Assembly: GCF_029626175.1 (NCBI RefSeq)
Contig: NZ_JARUBM010000002.1
Location: 5,349,001 to 5,413,000 of the forward strand
DNA: 64,000 nucleotides
Reading direction: 5' to 3'
Origin: Micromonospora sp. WMMD1082
Lineage (GTDB): Bacteria; Actinomycetota; Actinomycetes; Mycobacteriales; Micromonosporaceae
Part shown: positions 230-16,038 of the stretch, one piece after another
Position numbering within the stretch: the first letter of the stretch is position 1
How the letters are laid out: every line of letters begins with the position of its first letter
Notes under the pieces: generated by a model
Databases searched by the model: none
What the model was told of the DNA's origin: nothing
The model's input: only the letters and a program-made list of their open reading frames with translations
Made by a program: the position numbers and the translations under genes

Positions 230-2008
230 TCAGGACCGGCCGTCGAGCAACCGCGCCAGTTCGTCGGGCGACAACCGCGCCGCGCGGTCCAGCAGCAGGC
301 CCTCGACATACTCGGCCTGGGCGGCGACCGTCTGGTACCCGAACAGCTCGGCCACCCCGACGGGGGCGTGGAACGCCTCACTCAACCGGAACGAGAGCTG
401 CGCGACGGTGAGCGAGTGCCCGCCCAGGTCGAAGAGGGCGTCGTGGGCGCCGGGGGAGACACCGAGCAGCGCCTGCCAGGCAGCGGCGATGGTCTCCTGG
501 AGGTAGCCCTGCGGCTCGACCCGCTCCGCGGTGCCGGCCCACGCCAGCACCTCGACGTCGGCCTGGGCCGGGGCGGGCGGCACGTCACCGAGCCCCGGGA
601 TGTCGCGCACCCGGCGGTCCGGGTCGTCCACCACGGCGTCGACCAGCGCCCAGAACTCCTGCGCCCACTGCGCGATCCGGGACACATCCATGATCGCGTC
701 GTCGAAGTCCCACCGGGCGGTCAGGTCCGCGTCGCGGACCACCTTCACCATCAGGTCGTACTGCGCCCAGCCACCGGTCAGCACGATCTCCTCGCAGTCC
801 ACCCCCAGGTAGCTGCCGCTCATGCCGGGTTGTCCCTCGACCGAGAAGACGGTCTGCACCAGCGGCGTGGAGCCGATCTCCCGCGGCGGACGCAGCTGCG
901 CCACCAGTTGCTCGAACGGCAGGTCCTGGTGTGCGTAGGCCGACATCGCCGAGGCGTGTTCGGCGGCGACGAGGTCGCGCACCGACGCGTCGGGGTCGGC
1001 CGCGCCGCGCAGCACCACCATGTTCAGGAAGTAGCCGACCATGTTCTCGGTCTCGGCCAGCGGCCGCGCGCTGATCGGCGTACCGACCAGGGTGTCGCGC
1101 GCCCCGGTGAGGCGCCAGAGCAGGAGCCGGAACGCGGTCAGCAGGACGACGAACGGCGTCGTCGCGTGCTGGCGGGCCGCGGCGGTCACCCGGTCGGCCA
1201 GCCCGGCGGGGGCGACGGCGTCCAGGTAGGCGCCGCCGCGTCGGGCCGAGCGCGGACGATCCAACGGCAGGGCGAGCCGAGCGGACGCGTCCGCCAGTCG
1301 ATCCGTCCAGTACCGGGTCAGCGCGGTCAGCCGGTCGCCGGCGAGAAAGCCGCGCTGCCACTCGGCGAAGTCGCCGTAGTGGACCGTCAGCGGCGGGAGC
1401 GCGGCGGGCCGACCTTCGCGCCGAGCCTGGTACAGCGCCTCCAGGTCGACGAGGAGCACACCCTGCGAGACTCCGTCGGTCACCATGTGGTGCGAGGCGA
1501 GCACCAGGACGTGGTCGTCCGGCGAGAGCCGGTACAGTCTCAGCCGCGCCAGTGGTCCCTGCTCCAGATCGAACGGCACCGCGAGATCGCTCGTGGCGGC
1601 CGCGGTCGCCACGGCGACTCCCTGCGCCGGCAGCTCCGTGACGCTGACATCCACCGGCGCGGACCCGGACACGAGCATCGGCATCTCGCCCTGGCGGATC
1701 AGTCGGCTGCGCAACGGCTCGTGCCGGGCGACGAGATCTCCGAACGCGGCCTGGAGCGCGGCGAGGTCGAGTGGGCCGGTGAGTCGGAACGCGACGTGGT
1801 CGACCAGACTTCCCGGTTCCCCGGTCATCAGGTCGGTCAGCCAGACCTGCTCCTGTCCGCTGGAGAGTCGTACCGGCGCGCTCGGATCGGGGCGCGGCCG
1901 CAACGAGCCGGCGCCGCTGTCGCGTCCCAGCAGCCGCAGCGCCGCCGCACGTCGGTTCGCCGGCAGGGACGCCAGCCGTCGTAGCAGATCCGTCGTCTCG
2001 TCGGCCAC
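230..2008 (-). CDS. free-standing NRPS condensation-carrier (C-T) protein
   Basis: Two-domain nonribosomal peptide synthetase protein of 592 residues. A condensation domain fills roughly residues 40-470 with an intact catalytic motif HHMVTDG near residue 172. A thiolation domain follows at about 500-575 with the phosphopantetheine serine in DLGGHSL near residue 529. There is no adenylation domain in the gene or elsewhere in the window, so an amino acid or aryl acid must be loaded in trans or the gene works with enzymes outside the window. The GTG at 2008 is chosen because AGGAGA lies 4 bases before it; upstream in-frame codons run into the preceding gene. It begins 8 bases after the stop of the XRE-TPR regulator, whose TAG overlaps this ribosome-binding site, so the two are probably co-translated. 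Seen: domains and motifs. Inferred: a role in the tryptophan-derived pathway further right. Confidence 0.9.
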   Translation of the reverse strand: MADETTDLLRRLASLPANRRAAALRLLGRDSGAGSLRPRPDPSAPVRLSSGQEQVWLTDLMTGEPGSLVDHVAFRLTGPLDLAALQAAFGDLVARHEPLRSRLIRQGEMPMLVSGSAPVDVSVTELPAQGVAVATAAATSDLAVPFDLEQGPLARLRLYRLSPDDHVLVLASHHMVTDGVSQGVLLVDLEALYQARREGRPAALPPLTVHYGDFAEWQRGFLAGDRLTALTRYWTDRLADASARLALPLDRPRSARRGGAYLDAVAPAGLADRVTAAARQHATTPFVVLLTAFRLLLWRLTGARDTLVGTPISARPLAETENMVGYFLNMVVLRGAADPDASVRDLVAAEHASAMSAYAHQDLPFEQLVAQLRPPREIGSTPLVQTVFSVEGQPGMSGSYLGVDCEEIVLTGGWAQYDLMVKVVRDADLTARWDFDDAIMDVSRIAQWAQEFWALVDAVVDDPDRRVRDIPGLGDVPPAPAQADVEVLAWAGTAERVEPQGYLQETIAAAWQALLGVSPGAHDALFDLGGHSLTVAQLSFRLSEAFHAPVGVAELFGYQTVAAQAEYVEGLLLDRAARLSPDELARLLDGRS

Positions 2009-8876: not shown

Positions 8877-9902
8877 ATGGTGCTCCATCGGGTCGTCGCG
8901 CTGGTCCTGCCGCCGCAATCCACGTTCGAGTTGGCGTGCGCCGCCGAGGTCTTCGGAGTGCCCCGCCCCGGCCTTCCCGCCCACTACGAGTTCACGGTGT
9001 GCGCCGAAGAACCGGGCGCGGTGCCGACCCTCGCGGGCTACGCGATGGTGGTGCCCGCAGGACTGTCCGCGCTGCGGCGCGCCGACACGATCGTCATCCC
9101 CGGCCAGCAGCTTCGTGACCAGCCCGCCTCACCTGCCGTGATCGAGGCGGTCAGGCGGGCGCATCAGCGCGGCGCGCGCATCGTGGCGATCTGCTCCGGT
9201 GCCTTCCTGCTCGCCCAGGCGGGACTGCTCGATCATCGTCGAGCCACCACCCATTGGCGGATGGCGGGTGAGCTACAGGCCCGCTTCCCGAACGTCGCCG
9301 TCGAACCCGACACGCTGTACGTCGACCAGGACAACATCGCCACCAGCGCGGGCACCGCCGCCGGCATCGACCTCTGCCTGCACCTGGTCCGCACCGACCA
9401 CGGCGCCGCCTACGCCGCGCAGATCGCGCGGCACATGGTCATGCCACCGCATCGCGAGGGCGGGCAGCTTCAGTACGCCGCGCCTGCCCACACCGAGCGC
9501 CCGCCAGACTCTCTCGCGCCCCTGCTGGACTGGGCCGTCGAACGGCTGCATGAACCCCTCACGGTCGACGCCCTGGCCAGATTCGCGAGGGTGTCCGCGC
9601 GTACCCTCGCCCGCCGGTTCGCCGACCAACTCGGCGTCAGCCCAGGCAGGTGGCTTCTCCACCAGCGCATCGCGGCGGCTCAGGCGCTGCTGGAAGAGAC
9701 CGACCTGTCGGTCGACGCGGTCGCCGACCGGACCGGCCTCTCCTCGGCCGCCAACCTGCGCAGAGGCTTCCGCGACACGGTACGCACCTCGCCCGCCGCG
9801 TACCGGCGCTCCTTCGGCCGCCGCAGCGAACTGCTCACCGCTGCCGCTCCTCGGCGCGCTCGCGGCTACGGTGTTCCGCCGGGAGGCACCGCCGGCGGAT
9901 GA
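8877..9902 (+). CDS. GlxA-family regulator (DJ-1/PfpI domain plus AraC HTH)
   Basis: Regulator of 341 residues. Residues 1-190 form a DJ-1/PfpI-like domain with the nucleophile-elbow cysteine in AICSGAFLLAQAG. The C-terminal 100 residues are an AraC-type helix-turn-helix pair (VDALARFARVSARTLARRF; VDAVADRTGLSSAANLRRGF). The ATG at 8877 is preceded six bases upstream by TACTTT and has no ribosome-binding site, so it may be leaderless. Its 3' end overlaps the end of the convergent methyltransferase gene by 37 bases. Likely controls the divergent cupin gene. Confidence 0.88.
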   Translation: MVLHRVVALVLPPQSTFELACAAEVFGVPRPGLPAHYEFTVCAEEPGAVPTLAGYAMVVPAGLSALRRADTIVIPGQQLRDQPASPAVIEAVRRAHQRGARIVAICSGAFLLAQAGLLDHRRATTHWRMAGELQARFPNVAVEPDTLYVDQDNIATSAGTAAGIDLCLHLVRTDHGAAYAAQIARHMVMPPHREGGQLQYAAPAHTERPPDSLAPLLDWAVERLHEPLTVDALARFARVSARTLARRFADQLGVSPGRWLLHQRIAAAQALLEETDLSVDAVADRTGLSSAANLRRGFRDTVRTSPAAYRRSFGRRSELLTAAAPRRARGYGVPPGGTAGG

Positions 9903-10939
9903 GGTGTTCGACGGGCGGCGGAGTCCGGCTTGTACGCGGTGACCAGCTCCCAGGTGCCGGGAAGCACTGCCACGTGCTGGAAGCCGATCTCCTCGAGCAG
10001 TGTGGTGTAGAAGTCCGCCTCGCGTAGGCGGCTGACGCTGCTGTCGACGCCGATCAGGAAGTAGCTCCAGAAGAACTGCATGGCCAGCCGGTCCGGGGTG
10101 CGGAACTCCTCGCAGATCAGGATCAGCCCGCCCGGCTCCAACGCCGCGTACGCCTGTCGCACCAGTTCGCGGGCCACGGCGTTGGGCCAGTCGTGCAGTA
10201 CCCGGACGAAGGAGAGCGCGTCGTAGCCCGGCGGCAGGGGTTCGGCGAAGAAGTCGCCGCCGACGAAGCCCAGCCGATCCGGGTGACCGGAGGTGGCCCG
10301 GGTGGCGGCCACCAGCGGTGCCACCGCCGGCAGGTTGTACACGTCGGCCCGCAGATCCGGCGCGGCGTCGAGGATGTGGGCGGCGAGTGTCCCGTCGCCA
10401 CCGCCCACGTCCAGCAGGCGACGCCGGTCCGACCAGAGGTGGCCCGCGTGCCGGCGTACCGTCTCGATCGCCGGCCCCAGCCCGAGGGCCATGCTGCGCT
10501 CGAACTCCGCGGTCTGGGCGGCGGTGGTCGGCGGCCAGGTGAAACCGTCGTCGATGCTGACGTCGCCGCGCAGGCTCTCGGCCAGCCGCCCGTGCAACTG
10601 CCGCCAGGGGTAGCGGTCCCGGTCCCGTTCGGTGGCGCCCGGCCCGACCACCGCGTTGACCGCGTCGTGCAGCCCCGGCACGGCTCGGTAGCTGGTCGCG
10701 CCGATGTCGTCGTCGGCCTCGTCGCGGGTCAAGCAGCCGAGGCTCTCGATGCAGTCGAGGAACTTGTACAGCCGGAGCGGAAGCACCCCGAACCGGGCGG
10801 CCAGCGCGTCGAGACGGACCGGTCCGGGCTCCAGCGCGTCGAGCAGCCCCAGGTCCAGCGCCGTCTGCAGCACGTCCATGGCCTTGGGCCCGTTGACGAG
10901 CAGGCTCATCAACGCCCGGGGCGAGAGGGTGACGGTCAC
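9866..10939 (-). CDS. SAM-dependent methyltransferase of the tryptophan operon
   Basis: Methyltransferase of 357 residues in the plant/actinomycete O-methyltransferase fold. It has an N-terminal dimerisation helix bundle (about 1-110) and a Rossmann core with the SAM loop LLDVGGGDGTLAA and the later motif YDALSFVRVLHDWPN. Enzymes of this family include the 3-hydroxykynurenine C-methyltransferases of the sibiromycin and anthramycin pathways, a suggestive parallel because it closes an operon with kynurenine-type enzymes. The GTG at 10939 overlaps the preceding stop as GTGA. The substrate is inferred; an O-methyl product is equally possible. Confidence 0.85.
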   Translation of the reverse strand: MTVTLSPRALMSLLVNGPKAMDVLQTALDLGLLDALEPGPVRLDALAARFGVLPLRLYKFLDCIESLGCLTRDEADDDIGATSYRAVPGLHDAVNAVVGPGATERDRDRYPWRQLHGRLAESLRGDVSIDDGFTWPPTTAAQTAEFERSMALGLGPAIETVRRHAGHLWSDRRRLLDVGGGDGTLAAHILDAAPDLRADVYNLPAVAPLVAATRATSGHPDRLGFVGGDFFAEPLPPGYDALSFVRVLHDWPNAVARELVRQAYAALEPGGLILICEEFRTPDRLAMQFFWSYFLIGVDSSVSRLREADFYTTLLEEIGFQHVAVLPGTWELVTAYKPDSAARRTPHPPAVPPGGTP

Positions 10940-12099
10940 CGGTGCGGCTCCTTCTCCAACGCGTCCATGAACAGGTCGATCTCGTCGAGGGTGTTGTAGA
11001 CGTGCGGGCCGACCCGCAGATAGCCACGCCAGCTGCAGATCACGCCGCGGGCGGCCAGCCGCTGCTTGACGGCCTCGCCGTCGGGGACGTCCAGGCACAC
11101 CACCCCGCCACGTCGGCCCGCGTCGGTGGGGCTCACCACCACGATGCCGGCGGCCTCGGCCCGGTCCAGCAGCCGCTGGGTGAGCGCCAGCGAATGCCGC
11201 CGGATGGCGTCGACGCCGACGCCGGCCAGCAGGTCCAGACCGACCTGGGACACCAGCGAGGTGGGCGGGTACGGTGTGCCACCGGCGAACCGGCGCACTC
11301 CCGCCGCCCACCCGTGCGAGGGCCGGAACGTCAGTGCGCGGTCGCCGGCCTGCCAGCCGGTGGCCGCCGGCGTCAACAGCGGCACCAGGTCCGGCCGGAC
11401 GTAGAGGAACGCGGTGCCGACACCACACAGCCACTTGTGGGAACCGCCGATGACGACGTCGACGCCGAGCGCGGTGACATCCAACGGCACCACCCCGACG
11501 GTCTGGAAGGCGTCCACCACCACCAACGCGCCGACGTCGTGGGCGTGGGCCACCAGGCGGGGCAGGTCGACGGTGGCGCCGGAGGTGAAGCTGGCGTGTG
11601 GCACGCACACCAGCAGCGTCCGCTCGTCGATCCTGGCCTCGAGAGCGTCCTGGTCGAGGTGGGGGCCACCGGTGCCGACCACGTCGAGTTCGGCGCCATA
11701 GCGGCCGTACGCCCGGAAGATGAACGGCACCGTCGGATAGTCGAGATCCGTGCTGACCACCCGGTTGCGCGGCGGGCGGTAGTCGAAGCAGGACGCCACC
11801 CGGGCCAGGAAGGTGCTCAGGTTCGCGTCGGTGAGCACGCTGCCCGGCGGCGCGCCGAGGAGCGCGGCCACCGAGTCGGCATACCGGTCAAGGCCGACGT
11901 GCCAGTCCTGCCACACGTCGTCGCGCCAGGTGCGTAGCGTCTCCCAGTAGTCGTGCAGCACCCGCTCGACCCCCCTCGGCACCGCGCCGGTGGAGTTGCT
12001 GTTCAGGTAGACGCAGGTCTGCAACAGGGGGAACTCGGCGCGCAGGGCGGCGTGCGTGCCGGTGTCGAGGCATCGTGGGCTCTGCTCGGACTGGCTCAC
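10936..12099 (-). CDS. kynureninase-like class V PLP-dependent enzyme
   Basis: Fold-type I PLP enzyme of 387 residues, class V (kynureninase, cysteine desulfurase and epimerase group). The PLP lysine is in GGSHKWLCGVG near residue 220, and the cofactor aspartate is in VVVDAFQTVG. The lysine context SHKWL differs from the YKYLN of classical kynureninases, so substrate specificity may have shifted. Position between a tryptophan-dioxygenase-like gene and a methyltransferase supports cleavage of a kynurenine-type amino acid to an anthranilate-type product plus alanine. GTG 12099 overlaps the previous stop as GTGA and has GGAAGG eight bases upstream. No kynurenine formamidase is seen in the window. 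Confidence 0.8.
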   Translation of the reverse strand: MSQSEQSPRCLDTGTHAALRAEFPLLQTCVYLNSNSTGAVPRGVERVLHDYWETLRTWRDDVWQDWHVGLDRYADSVAALLGAPPGSVLTDANLSTFLARVASCFDYRPPRNRVVSTDLDYPTVPFIFRAYGRYGAELDVVGTGGPHLDQDALEARIDERTLLVCVPHASFTSGATVDLPRLVAHAHDVGALVVVDAFQTVGVVPLDVTALGVDVVIGGSHKWLCGVGTAFLYVRPDLVPLLTPAATGWQAGDRALTFRPSHGWAAGVRRFAGGTPYPPTSLVSQVGLDLLAGVGVDAIRRHSLALTQRLLDRAEAAGIVVVSPTDAGRRGGVVCLDVPDGEAVKQRLAARGVICSWRGYLRVGPHVYNTLDEIDLFMDALEKEPHR

Positions 12100-13361
12100 G
12101 CGCAGTGCCTTCCACTCCGGTCGGCCGCAGGTGGATCGGTGGTCACGGCGGTGAAGACCGGTGCGGCGCTGACCGCCGCCAGGTATGGCGTGCCCTCGGT
12201 GTAGCCGGTGCCGGAGCGCGCGCCGAGCATCCGCACCGCCAGCCGGTGATGGGTGCGTCGCCACTGCGACAGGGTGCCGGCGAACGCGGCCATCCGCCGC
12301 GCCACCAGGGCGTGGTCCGGACCGGCGAGCCGGCCATCGGCAACAGCCGACCGGTACGTCTCGTCAACCGTCGGCTGGCCGTCCTGTACCTGGGCCCGCA
12401 CCTCCGGCACCGCCCGGTAGGCCACCGAGTCCAGCCGATCCGCATCCGGGGTACGACACAGCGACTCCACCAGCTTGTACGAGCGGGACTGGATCGCGCT
12501 GGCCCCCTCGGTGTACTGCCGGAACGTGCGGAACGACTCCGGCTGCATGGTGGCCAGCAGAGAGAAGAGCGGACCCGCGGCGCGCAGCAGGTCACCCGCG
12601 TACCCGAGCCGGTCGGCGGCGGCGCCCGGCGCGTCCCCGGCCAGTGCGGTGACCACCGCGCGAAGTTCGTCGGCGACCCCGGCGAAGAGGCACTCATAGC
12701 CCTGCAGCACCCGGATGAACAGGTACTCGTCGTGCGTCACGTGGACCGGCAGCATGCTCAACCGCAGCGACGGATCCTCGGGGGACGCGAGGTCACCGGC
12801 GATGGCGTGCAGGTCGGCGGCGGCGGTGGCCGGGTCGTCCGCACCGACCGCCTTGTTCAGGCCGAGACGGGCCAGCGCGGGAGCAGCGGCGCGGACCCCG
12901 AGTCGGCAACGTTTGGTGACCACCGCCGGCCCGGGGCGGTGCTGTGGCAGCAGCCCGGTGGTGTGCGCGGCGGCAGCCAACTCGAAGGCCAGCGTGTCGG
13001 CGATCAGGCGGACGAGGAGCCGGTCCCGGGCACGCCGTCCGTCGGCCGCCCGCGCTGCCGGGGACTGATCGTCTGCTCCATCGGAGAACCGGAGCAGGCG
13101 TAGGGCGAGGTAGCTGCGGTAGTCGTAGCGGCCGTCCCACTTGTCGAGTGCGACGTCGAGAAAGTCGGTCAGCAGCCGTGTCGAGGCGTCACCGTCGGCT
13201 GGTGTCCGGCTGGCGACCTTCCCCCGCGCCTCGTCGAGCAGGGCGAGGAAGCTCTTTTCGACAAAGTGTTTACCGACCCGGTGAAATTCGTCCAGGACCG
13301 CCGAATAGGGAAAGCTGCGCGGTCCGGCCGTACCGGACAACCAGTGAGCTACAGCACGCAC
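12096..13361 (-). CDS. TDO/PrnB-superfamily heme enzyme, atypical
   Basis: Protein of 421 residues that I place in the histidine-ligated heme aromatic oxygenase superfamily (tryptophan 2,3-dioxygenase, PrnB, MarE). The evidence is FRTFRQYTEGASAIQSRSY, parallel to the FRDYL-PASGFQS region of TDO, and WRRTHHRLAVRMLG followed by GTGYTEGTPYL, parallel to the heme-histidine helix and GTGGSSG loop. It is about 150 residues longer than bacterial TDO, and its N-terminal third (LDKWDGRYDYRSYLALRLL) has no TDO counterpart that I recognise. GTG 13361 has GAGGGG six or seven bases upstream. A second, smaller TDO-like protein is encoded just upstream, so the two probably catalyse successive or alternative steps on tryptophan. 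Which reaction is unknown. Confidence 0.65.
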   Translation of the reverse strand: MRAVAHWLSGTAGPRSFPYSAVLDEFHRVGKHFVEKSFLALLDEARGKVASRTPADGDASTRLLTDFLDVALDKWDGRYDYRSYLALRLLRFSDGADDQSPAARAADGRRARDRLLVRLIADTLAFELAAAAHTTGLLPQHRPGPAVVTKRCRLGVRAAAPALARLGLNKAVGADDPATAAADLHAIAGDLASPEDPSLRLSMLPVHVTHDEYLFIRVLQGYECLFAGVADELRAVVTALAGDAPGAAADRLGYAGDLLRAAGPLFSLLATMQPESFRTFRQYTEGASAIQSRSYKLVESLCRTPDADRLDSVAYRAVPEVRAQVQDGQPTVDETYRSAVADGRLAGPDHALVARRMAAFAGTLSQWRRTHHRLAVRMLGARSGTGYTEGTPYLAAVSAAPVFTAVTTDPPAADRSGRHCA

Positions 13362-13443
13362 GTGTCACCCCTCGAAATTGACGAGACGAACCACGGTCAA
13401 AGGCCGCAGGTTGTGCCGGCGCGAAGGTTGAGGTTGAGCGACG

Positions 13444-14130
13444 CTAATCGTCGGCGGTGGAGTGCATCCGCACCTGCCACAGCTCGGGGAAGAATCGGTG
13501 TCCGGCGAGTTTGGCCAGCATGTTCACCGGACTACCCGGGGTGCCAGCCGGTGGGTGACCACCGATTCGGAGCGCCACCTGGTAATGACGGACCCGCCAC
13601 AGCGATACCCGCTCGTCCCACTCCACCATCGCCTCGGCGAGCCGGTGCAGCGGATCCGACAGGTCCGCCGGGCACAGGTCCGCGGCCGGGACACCCCGGA
13701 CGGCAAGCTGCCCGTCGAACGAGCGACCGAGCTTCCGACTGGCCGACTGGACCTGCCGCCAACCCGGCGACTCCGCGCCGGAACCGTTGCCGAGAGCCGG
13801 CTGCATCGCCTGAAAGTCCACTGGGGACAGATACCGCAGCATGTCCAGTTGGTCGGTGATCAACCGGACCGCGAGCGTCGCCCGGACCAGCAGCGCCTCG
13901 GCGACCGACAGCTCCCCGGCATCCACCCGATCGGTCGCCTCGGCCAGCTCCGCCGCCGCCAGTTTCAGCCACAGCTCGGCGGACTGGTGCACCACCTGGA
14001 AAAGCAGCTCGTCGCGATGGATCACCTCGCCCGGCGATCGTTGCAGACCCAGCAAAGTATCCGTCCGCATATAACGCGCGTAGTCCGTAGCGCCGGAACC
14101 CGGCAGGACAGGCGAGTGGTCATGCTTCAC
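13444..14130 (-). CDS. tryptophan 2,3-dioxygenase-like protein
   Basis: Protein of 228 residues with clear TDO motifs: YARYMRTDTLLGLQ and DELLFQVVHQSAELWLKL at the N-terminus, GNGSGAESPGWRQVQ in the middle, and WRVRHYQVALRIGG carrying the probable heme-ligand histidine near the C-terminus. TDO oxidises L-tryptophan to N-formylkynurenine. The GTGGSSG loop expected after the heme helix is replaced by GTPGSPVN and the protein is about 50 residues short of typical bacterial TDO, so substrate or reaction may differ. GTG 14130 has GGAGGG seven bases upstream; longer in-frame starts lack one. It is the first gene of the four-gene operon and is separated by 82 bases from the second. Confidence 0.8.
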   Translation of the reverse strand: MKHDHSPVLPGSGATDYARYMRTDTLLGLQRSPGEVIHRDELLFQVVHQSAELWLKLAAAELAEATDRVDAGELSVAEALLVRATLAVRLITDQLDMLRYLSPVDFQAMQPALGNGSGAESPGWRQVQSASRKLGRSFDGQLAVRGVPAADLCPADLSDPLHRLAEAMVEWDERVSLWRVRHYQVALRIGGHPPAGTPGSPVNMLAKLAGHRFFPELWQVRMHSTADD

Positions 14131-14401: not shown

Positions 14402-15028
14402 CTAGGGGTGTGGCGCCGTCGTGGCGTACAGCACGGCCTGGACGGCCTGGCGGAGATCTTCCCGGCTCTCGGTGGTGCCCGGTGTCGGAGCGGTCAGCGC
14501 GCCGGCGCCGGCCAGCCGATCGAAGAGCAGACCGTCGATGTACGCCACGAGGTGAGCGCCCTGCCGCGATGGGTCGGGCGCCCCGGCGCGGGCCAGCAAC
14601 GCCTCGGCCTGTGCCCGGAAGGCGGTGCCATGGCTCAGGATCTGGCGCAACTGGGGGCGGTGAGTGGCCTCGATCAGGCAGGCGTACCGGGCCAGTGTCC
14701 GGTTGCGGTGGGCGCTCAGCCAACGGTCGAGCAGCGTGGCGATGCCGATCGCCAGGTGCTCGATGTCGGCGGCGGTCAGCGGCGCCGGGTCGGCGCGGGG
14801 CGGGCCGGACGCCAGCTGGTCCCGCGTGATGTCGGCCCACTCCAGCTCGGCCAGACGCCGTACCACGCCTTCGATGAGCGCCTCCCGGGTGCGGAAGTAG
14901 GCCGAGGTGGAGCCGAGGGGCAACCGCGCCCGGGCGTCCACCGCCCGGTGGGTCAGCCCGCGCATGCCGGCTTCGGCGATCAGGTCGATCGCCGCGTCCG
15001 CGAGCAGGGCAATCCGACTGCCGGTCAC
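14402..15028 (-). CDS. TetR-family repressor
   Basis: TetR-type regulator of 208 residues. The N-terminal helix-turn-helix (AIDLIAEAGMRGLTHRAVDAR followed by GSTSAYFRTREALIEGV) covers about residues 8-55 and the remainder is a helical ligand-binding domain. GTG 15028 is chosen because a full AGGAGG lies four bases upstream. It is divergent from an FAD monooxygenase, and a near-ideal operator lies in the 71-base gap between them, so it very probably represses both genes and responds to a small aromatic ligand. Confidence 0.9.
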   Translation of the reverse strand: MTGSRIALLADAAIDLIAEAGMRGLTHRAVDARARLPLGSTSAYFRTREALIEGVVRRLAELEWADITRDQLASGPPRADPAPLTAADIEHLAIGIATLLDRWLSAHRNRTLARYACLIEATHRPQLRQILSHGTAFRAQAEALLARAGAPDPSRQGAHLVAYIDGLLFDRLAGAGALTAPTPGTTESREDLRQAVQAVLYATTAPHP

Positions 15029-15050
15029 CGCGCCTCCTCGTTCGCCTTCT

Positions 15051-15081
15051 CTACACCTGTAGAGTACTTCTACAGGTGTAG
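15051..15081. promoter_or_regulatory. 31-bp double-palindrome TetR operator
   Basis: Two perfectly complementary 13-base arms, CTACACCTGTAGA (15051-15063) and TCTACAGGTGTAG (15069-15081), flank GTACT. Each arm is itself a near-palindrome, CTACA-CC-TGTAG. This is the pattern expected for two TetR dimers bound side by side. It lies centrally between the divergent repressor and monooxygenase starts. Confidence 0.85.
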
Positions 15082-15099
15082 AGAGAGTGGGAGGGACAC

Positions 15100-16038
15100 G
15101 TGACGAGCCAGATGCGGACACCACCTTCTGCGGTGGTGGTGGGCGGCGGGATCGCCGGGCTGTCGAGCGCGCTGGCCCTGCACCGGGCCGGCTGGCAGGT
15201 GACGGTGCTGGAGCGGCAGCCGGAGTTCGGGGAGGTCGGGGCGGGCCTCAGCCTGATGGCCAACGGGCCGCCCGCCGAGGTGACCTACCTGCGCGATGGC
15301 GATTCGGTCACCATCCCCGCCGACCTGGTCGTCGGGGCGGACGGCATCCACAGCAGGGTGCGTAACCTGCTGTGGCCGGATCTCCCGCTGCCGGCATACT
15401 GCGGGTCCACCGCGTGGCGCGGGGTGACACCACAGCCGTGGCCCGAACCGGTCCCGGCCGCACTCAGTTGGGACCGGGGTGCGGAGTTCGGCATGCTCCC
15501 GTTCGCGGACAACCGGGTCTACTGGTACGCCGCCGTGTGCGCTCCGGCGGGGCAGCGGTCCACCAACGAGCACGCGGCCGTACGGGATCGCTTCGGCGCG
15601 TGGCACGAGCCCATCGCGGCGCTGATCGACGCCACCCCCGCCGAGGCGGTCCTACGGCACGACCTCTACCACCTGGATCGGCTACCCGACACGTACGTCA
15701 AGGGCCGGGTGGCGCTGGTCGGCGACGCCGCCCACGCGATGACCCCGTTCCTGGGACAGGGCGCCTGTCAGGCGATCGAGGACGCGGTGGTGCTCGGCCG
15801 AGCGTTCGCCGGTGGGGCGCCGCCGGGGGAGGCGTTGGCCCGCTACGACCAGCTGCGGCTTCCGCGTACCCGAAGCGTCGCGCGGGCCTCGCTGCTGGCC
15901 GGCAGGTTCGGTCAGCAGCTCGACAACCCGGTCGCCGTGGCGCTGCGCAACGCGATGATGCGGCTCACCCCCGCGTCGGTGGCGCTGAGATCCATGGCAC
16001 GGCACGTCGCCTGGGATCCACCCGACCTCATGCCCTAG
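15100..16038 (+). CDS. FAD-dependent monooxygenase with an internal deletion
   Basis: PHBH-type flavin monooxygenase of 312 residues, against about 380-400 for the family. The dinucleotide loop VVGGGIAGLSSAL, the DG motif VVGADGIHSRVR and the GD motif VALVGDAAHAMTPFLGQG are all intact. After GAGLSLMANG the sequence jumps straight to a short linker and PADLVVGADG. About 75 residues that normally carry the arginine helix and part of the substrate-binding sheet are missing without a frame break. GTG 15100 has GGGAGGG four bases upstream. Divergent TetR control implies induction by its substrate or a related aromatic. It may be a compact variant or a decayed enzyme. Confidence 0.85.
   Translation: MTSQMRTPPSAVVVGGGIAGLSSALALHRAGWQVTVLERQPEFGEVGAGLSLMANGPPAEVTYLRDGDSVTIPADLVVGADGIHSRVRNLLWPDLPLPAYCGSTAWRGVTPQPWPEPVPAALSWDRGAEFGMLPFADNRVYWYAAVCAPAGQRSTNEHAAVRDRFGAWHEPIAALIDATPAEAVLRHDLYHLDRLPDTYVKGRVALVGDAAHAMTPFLGQGACQAIEDAVVLGRAFAGGAPPGEALARYDQLRLPRTRSVARASLLAGRFGQQLDNPVAVALRNAMMRLTPASVALRSMARHVAWDPPDLMP

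What the first reader, a model, noticed from the sequence alone, without database searches (positions are those of the whole stretch)
9866..14130. Four-gene operon with two different tryptophan-dioxygenase-superfamily enzymes
A short TDO-like protein, a 421-residue TDO/PrnB-like heme protein, a kynureninase-like enzyme and a methyltransferase are encoded together; the last three starts are coupled or nearly so. The large heme protein has the TDO C-terminal pattern but an N-terminal third I cannot place, and the small one has lost the GTGGSSG loop. This does not match the known methyl-hydroxyanthranilate set, which needs one TDO, a formamidase and a 3-monooxygenase. A new tryptophan-processing route is possible.
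Basis: partly seen in the sequence, partly recalled or inferred. Interest (0 to 1): 0.72.

Follow-up and report, generated by a model that had tools for sequence, protein, structure and literature searches.

The report
Operon with two tryptophan-dioxygenase-type heme enzymes
A soil actinobacterium carries a compact four-gene set, shared by many of its relatives, with two unlike heme enzymes of the tryptophan-dioxygenase family plus a kynureninase-like enzyme and a methyltransferase, which probably makes a small methylated compound from tryptophan by an undescribed route.

Summary
Four minus-strand genes at 9866-14130 encode S (228 aa) and L (421 aa), both above Pfam's Trp_dioxygenase cut-off, K (kynureninase-like PLP enzyme) and M (methyltransferase); L-K and K-M overlap by 4 bases. 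S is closest in fold to MarE. Both keep the heme-ligating His. L has Leu at the distal-His site in 85 of 85 loci; S keeps that His but lacks the carboxylate-binding Arg in this S-L-K-M group alone (0 of 24; Arg in 49 of 50 others). S and L co-occur in 56 of 58 L-bearing Micromonospora genomes, yet can lie over 100 kb apart, and each also occurs where the other was not found. So they look like two separate heme oxygenases of one dedicated pathway, not an obligate heterodimer. The genome also has primary KynA-KynU genes and a second S-K-L cluster. Substrate and product are unknown; no paper on the pair turned up in the open-access listings searched. New variant of a known kind.

The parts
13444..14130 (-). 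S: small TDO-superfamily protein, 228 aa, MarE-like fold
12096..13361 (-). L: 421-aa TDO-superfamily protein
   Evidence: PF03301 53.9 bits; hhalign against a canonical TDO profile, prob 99.1, E 1.4e-18; model pLDDT 91.8
12819..13361 (-). L residues 1-181: N-terminal helical domain, IDO/PrnB-type cap by predicted fold
   Evidence: Listed VIA rows for PrnB/IDO span model 13-410 (260-277 aligned); TDO rows only 182-414 (214-225 aligned)
10936..12099 (-). K: kynureninase-like class-V PLP enzyme, 387 aa
   Evidence: PF00266 106.3 bits, PF22580 KYNU_C 48.2 bits; best PDB sequence 1qz9 kynureninase E 4.5e-39; Lys codon 11434-11436
9866..10939 (-). M: SAM methyltransferase of the Methyltransf_2 family, 357 aa
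   Evidence: PF00891 80.4 bits; best PDB sequence RedM E 2.7e-25
13987..13989 (-). S His48, aligned with XcTDO/MarE His55 (distal)
   Evidence: His in 73 of 74 S rows, 1 gap; codon checked
13801..13803 (-). S Gln110, at the site of XcTDO Arg117 / MarE Arg118 (substrate carboxylate)
   Evidence: 22 Gln + 2 Lys of 24 in group A; Arg in 49 of 50 others, 1 gap
13585..13587 (-). S His182, heme-ligand site
   Evidence: His in 73 of 74, 1 gap
12705..12707 (-). L Leu219 at the distal-His site
   Evidence: Leu in 85 of 85
12519..12521 (-). L Arg281 at the carboxylate-binding site
   Evidence: Arg in 85 of 85
12249..12251 (-). L His371, heme-ligand site
   Evidence: His in 85 of 85

Best explanation
A dedicated specialised-metabolism module, separate from primary kynurenine catabolism. 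L and S are two complete but unlike heme oxygenases of the TDO/HDAO superfamily. L, with its own IDO/PrnB-like cap and the conserved Arg, most likely takes the free indole amino acid (tryptophan or a close derivative) and inserts oxygen at the indole C2-C3. S, a MarE-like oligomer whose carboxylate-gripping Arg has been replaced, acts on a changed or carboxylate-less indole or kynurenine-type intermediate, or holds it differently. K, a PLP enzyme next to kynureninase, cleaves or trims the side chain, and M methylates the resulting aromatic acid, amine or phenol. Shown: genes, order, conservation, predicted folds, residue pattern, co-occurrence. Inferred: heme binding, oligomer state, substrate, step order, product.
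For: Both proteins exceed the TDO cut-off and have confident TDO-superfamily models. Heme-site His: 73 of 74 S (1 gap), 85 of 85 L; L Arg 85 of 85. Group-A S and L are each monophyletic (support 0.997 and 0.998); with the 8 divergent L-S' loci left out, the only S columns fixed differently at 85% between group A (24) and the rest (42) are 109 and 110 (228-aa numbering), at the carboxylate site. In MarE, R118A weakened substrate binding about 12-fold (passages of PMC11904535). The own genome has KynA and KynU-like genes elsewhere, and 14 of 14 genus members checked have a separate TDO-family match of 101 bits or more, so this set is not the primary pathway. S and L are kept together in 56 of 58 L-bearing genomes, also in four where they are 118-165 kb apart.
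Against: No biochemical data. K lacks two canonical kynureninase residues. No formamidase or flavin hydroxylase is conserved next to S-L-K-M. S-K-M with no L found in 2 genomes (G148, G092) and a different TDO-like S' with K-M in G048 suggest that L is not always needed; both surveys scored only the top 12 (L) or 18 (S) first-look candidates per genome and could miss a divergent copy. Co-occurrence is not corrected for kinship.
Confidence: 0.45

Rival explanations
1. S and L form one hetero-oligomeric oxygenase: S supplies the distal His and the TDO-type N-terminal arm, L the carboxylate Arg and the cap, so each completes the other's pocket.
For: Complementary losses (S lacks Arg in group A, L lacks distal His); adjacency in most loci; 56 of 58 co-occurrence; S-L distances correlate r=0.64 over 74 loci (shared ancestry not removed).
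Against: S keeps Arg in 49 of 50 loci outside group A, so its loss does not follow from having L; L has a cap of its own. In 12 of 85 loci no S was called on L's strand within three genes; of these L049 has S adjacent after all and L086 has S on the other strand. Of the other ten, a whole-genome search found nothing, or only L's own frame, for five (L051, L056, L063, L067, L069) and other, unidentified TDO-family matches of 89-154 bits for five (L052, L064, L078, L081, L085). S-K-M with no L found in G148 and G092; genes split by over 100 kb in four genomes.
Confidence: 0.25
2. A second, partly redundant kynurenine route that makes anthranilate-type building blocks: S and/or L make N-formylkynurenine, a host formamidase removes the formyl group, K gives anthranilate and M methylates it.
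For: K nearest kynureninase; in 24 of 85 loci a PF04199 cyclase with weak likeness to arylformamidase and in 25 a flavin monooxygenase stand near L on the same strand (one representative each); dedicated single TDOs are known in quinomycin-type pathways (passages of PMC3578932).
Against: Those genes are absent beside S-L-K-M; two dioxygenases would be superfluous; K differs from kynureninase at His204 and Tyr226; S lost the carboxylate Arg in group A.
Confidence: 0.2
3. One of the two is a non-catalytic heme protein (sensor, carrier or chaperone for the other).
For: L lacks a distal His in 85 of 85; S in group A lacks the Arg. In G138 L reads in two frames.
Against: The distal His is not essential in this superfamily: this genome's KynA-type protein has Ser there (aligned by eye) and MarE H55A still makes product. 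Nine of the 11 pocket sites examined in L are invariant in 85 rows, the other two 82 of 85.
Confidence: 0.1

Closest known systems
Tryptophan 2,3-dioxygenase (KynA; PF03301, TIGR03036)
   Same: Superfamily, heme-site His, Phe51-type residue, core fold; L's core aligns with XcTDO
   Different: Far below the TIGR03036 equivalog cut-off (114 and 60.9 against 390.7 bits); L has Leu for distal His and an extra N-terminal domain; S lost the GTGGSSG letters and, here, the Arg
MarE (2-oxindole-forming monooxygenase, maremycin)
   Same: Best fold match of S; distal and proximal His; GTGGS loop replaced (MarE facts from passages of PMC11904535)
   Different: 22-23% identity in the structural alignments; a different replacement loop; the Arg118 site is Gln here; partner genes L, K and M
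PrnB and IDO
   Different: No Pfam match at E<=0.1 to PF08933 or PF01231, none by hhalign to one PrnB and one IDO sequence; L's sequence is TDO-like
Qui17 / TioF (TDOs of quinomycin-type pathways)
   Same: Dedicated TDO in a specialised pathway (passages of PMC3578932; TioF only from its reference list)
   Different: One TDO in the gene table shown, NRPS context, Qui17 acts on beta-hydroxytryptophan
Methyl-hydroxyanthranilate sets (actinomycin, sibiromycin; recalled)
   Same: TDO, kynureninase, methyltransferase logic
   Different: No formamidase or 3-monooxygenase here; two TDO-type proteins; M scores higher with RedM (92 bits) than with SibL (57 bits)

Membership tests
TDO superfamily (PF03301) | Profile score above the curated cut-off | tested here: met
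   S 75.4, L 53.9 bits; cut-off 34.9
Tryptophan 2,3-dioxygenase proper | TIGR03036 equivalog cut-off | tested here: not met
   114 and 60.9 against 390.7 bits
Tryptophan 2,3-dioxygenase proper | Converts L-Trp to N-formylkynurenine | not testable with these tools
   Needs enzyme assay
Heme-dependent aromatic oxygenases | Axial His ligand in the helical core | tested here: met
   S 73 of 74 (1 gap), L 85 of 85; heme binding itself not tested
MarE type (S) | Overall fold nearest MarE among solved structures | tested here: met
MarE type (S) | Arg118 that binds the substrate carboxylate | tested here: not met
   Gln in this S; Arg in 49 of 50 S outside group A
IDO / PrnB (L) | PF01231 or PF08933 profile match | tested here: not met
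   Only PF03301 listed at E<=0.1; hhalign prob at most 0.1% against one sequence each
IDO / PrnB (L) | N-terminal cap domain plus helical core | tested here: inconclusive
Kynureninase (K) | TIGR01814 cut-off | tested here: not met
   68.2 against 246.4 bits
Kynureninase (K) | PLP Lys, carboxylate Arg (roles recalled) | tested here: met
   Lys and Arg in 23 of 23 group-A and 38 of 38 other K rows
Kynureninase (K) | His204 and Tyr226 of Pseudomonas kynureninase (roles recalled) | tested here: not met
   Gln 23 of 23 and His 23 of 23 in group A
Methyl-hydroxyanthranilate gene set | Formamidase and 3-monooxygenase in the set | tested here: not met
   Beside S-L-K-M only these four genes recur; flanks vary between lineages
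Methyltransferase family PF00891 (M) | Profile above cut-off | tested here: met
   80.4 against 22.3 bits

The most novel reading that the evidence does not exclude
L is a TDO-lineage branch, not recognised before as far as these searches show, that carries an IDO/PrnB-like cap and a Leu distal site and works in sequence with a MarE-like S to oxidise an indole amino acid twice before a divergent kynureninase-type cleavage and methylation: a tryptophan-derived pathway with new heme chemistry, re-used with NRPS, ATP-grasp and NO-synthase genes across actinobacteria.
Probability: 0.3. Interest if true: 0.75.

Novelty: new variant of a known kind. Interest (0 to 1): 0.55.

Why it matters
TDO-superfamily enzymes do strikingly different reactions (ring cleavage, 2-oxindole formation, pyrrolnitrin rearrangement) with one scaffold. 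A natural pair in one operon, one MarE-like and one with TDO sequence but IDO/PrnB-like architecture, gives a direct way to ask what decides the reaction and how the TDO and IDO forms are related. The family is not rare: L was found in 58 of 151 Micromonospora genomes, and the protein searches scored 943 proteins with L and 1,248 with S at E<=0.001 (only the best 120 of each were listed, and the rest may include other TDOs). No described product was found.

Tried and rejected
Viral contigs: none of 6 pattern matches encodes an L relative. The IadDE auxin oxygenase came up in a paper search and was dropped: it is a Rieske enzyme. Whether the flavin monooxygenase at 15100-16038 belongs: not supported, flanks of S-L-K-M loci are not generally conserved. 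Obligate heterodimer: demoted to a rival. The first residue count for group A used a list that wrongly held L043 and lacked L018; corrected (group A = 23 S-L-K-M loci plus L018, which has S-L and a K remnant). First hhalign against PrnB used a wrong reading frame; redone. Literature: all ten searches; no title or abstract start listed is about this pair; only open-licence PMC papers are held, and four papers were looked into, by passages only (of the first also the abstract). The phylum survey (3 of 396 genomes, two of them this genome and a genus member) scored only 4 candidates per genome and may undercount. L012 (Embleya, half-length weak match) was left out of the counts; the locus search kept 80 of 88 relatives.

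Full report
Setting. The window lies in a 7.44 Mb genome; its L protein is closest to one of Micromonospora tarapacensis (85%). L-K and K-M overlap as GTGA; S and L are 82 bases apart. In gene calls over 23 S-L-K-M loci, K-M overlap by 4 bases in 22 and L-K in 19.

Families. Against Pfam at E<=0.1, S and L match only Trp_dioxygenase (75.4 and 53.9 bits, cut-off 34.9); K matches Aminotran_5 and KYNU_C; M matches Methyltransf_2. None reaches the equivalog cut-off of TDO or kynureninase in NCBIfam. By PDB sequence search S and L find TDOs, K finds kynureninase 1qz9 first and M finds RedM first.

Residues. XcTDO numbering was placed by the alignments (roles of TDO residues recalled, those of MarE from passages of PMC11904535). 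S keeps the distal His and the heme-site His in 73 of 74 rows each, 1 gap each. L has Leu at the distal site, Arg at the carboxylate site and the heme-site His in 85 of 85. S has Gln (22) or Lys (2) at the carboxylate site in the 24 group-A rows and Arg in 49 of the 50 others, the 50th being a gap. With the 8 divergent L-S' loci left out, only this column and its neighbour are fixed differently at 85% in S, and Phe222 to Tyr in L. Six further S genes followed by K and M have Gln (4) or Val (2) there; a divergent S' with K and M (G048) has Arg (letters read). MarE R118A and H55A weakened substrate binding about 12- and 20-fold, and H55A formed more product than its parent. The own KynA-type protein has Ser at the distal site (by eye), so L's Leu need not mean inactivity.

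Neighbourhoods. The locus search gave 88 relatives of L, of which 80 were kept. With the window, the paralog and three plasmid loci, 85 were examined: S-K-L 35, S-L-K-M 23, S-L 7, L-S' 8, L with no S or K called 10, K-L 1 (L049; S is adjacent), L-K 1. Near L on its strand stand a flavin monooxygenase (c3, 25 loci), a PF04199 cyclase with weak likeness to arylformamidase (c5, 24), an aminotransferase IV (c8, 18), ATP-grasp proteins and others (families from one representative each). Five loci carry an NO-synthase oxygenase (c31). Four S-L pairs (L009, L037, L047, L060) lie among NRPS genes (annotation of L009; gene clusters of the others). So the pair is a re-used module of specialised metabolism.

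Together or apart. In 151 Micromonospora genomes L was found in 58 and S in 61, both in 56 (Fisher p 7.5e-33 without correction for kinship). Of the two L-only genomes, G027 holds a partial S near a contig end and G100 has an L that starts late. In four genomes S-K-M and L are 118-165 kb apart (G132, G133, G138, G144); in G138 L reads in two frames; G148 and G092 have S-K-M and no L found. The surveys scored only the best 12 or 18 first-look candidates per genome. In a tree of 188 sequences L is separated from S plus canonical TDO with support 1.0, and the 66 main S form a clade at 0.954; group-A S and L are clades at 0.997 and 0.998. This speaks for two enzymes in one pathway and against an obligate heterodimer. 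Against it: adjacency in most loci and the high co-occurrence would also fit a complex.

Not the primary pathway. The genome has a KynA gene (165.5 bits) followed by KynU-like and KMO-like frames (by eye), and a second S-K-L set at C2:3061540-3064564. 14 of 14 genus members checked, with and without L, have a separate TDO-family match of 101 bits or more.

Kynureninase-like K. Compared with 1qz9 and the own KynU-like protein, K keeps the PLP Lys, an Asp and an Arg in 61 of 61 K rows, but has Gln for His204 and His for Tyr226 in 23 of 23 group-A rows; the 38 other K rows have Gln in 37 and mostly Met, Ser or Gly at the second site. Its reaction is therefore open.

Verdict. A new tryptophan-processing route is plausible but unproven.

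Noticed in passing
L008:8502-11610 (own genome, C2:3061540-3064564): A second, S-K-L ordered set in the same genome, with the Arg in S kept.
   Followed up: partly
L011, L068, L074, L076, L082: NO-synthase oxygenase genes beside S-K-L; NO plus heme oxygenases recalls nitration in thaxtomin-type pathways (recalled).
   Followed up: no
L034-L036, L045, L048, L050, L055, L059, L066, L073, L088 and others: Long recurring cluster around S-K-L with flavin monooxygenase, aminotransferase IV, PF04199 cyclase, and in varying number a PrmC-like methyltransferase, PPOX-FMN-reductase, ATP-grasp proteins and a protein family (c9) whose scanned member (L038, 461 aa) has no Pfam or NCBIfam match.
   Followed up: partly
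L071, L079, L083, L084, L089, L091, L092: L followed by a very divergent S-like protein and carrier-protein or NRPS genes; the one S-like protein scanned (L071) has no Pfam match.
   Followed up: no
L129 (genome G138): L reads in two overlapping frames while S-K-M stands elsewhere in the genome: decay or sequencing error.
   Followed up: no
window 230-2008 (-): Stand-alone condensation plus carrier-protein didomain.
   Followed up: no
window 14402-15124 (-) and 15100-16038 (+): TetR-type regulator upstream of S and a flavin monooxygenase on the other strand; no recurring gene cluster beside other S-L-K-M loci.
   Followed up: partly
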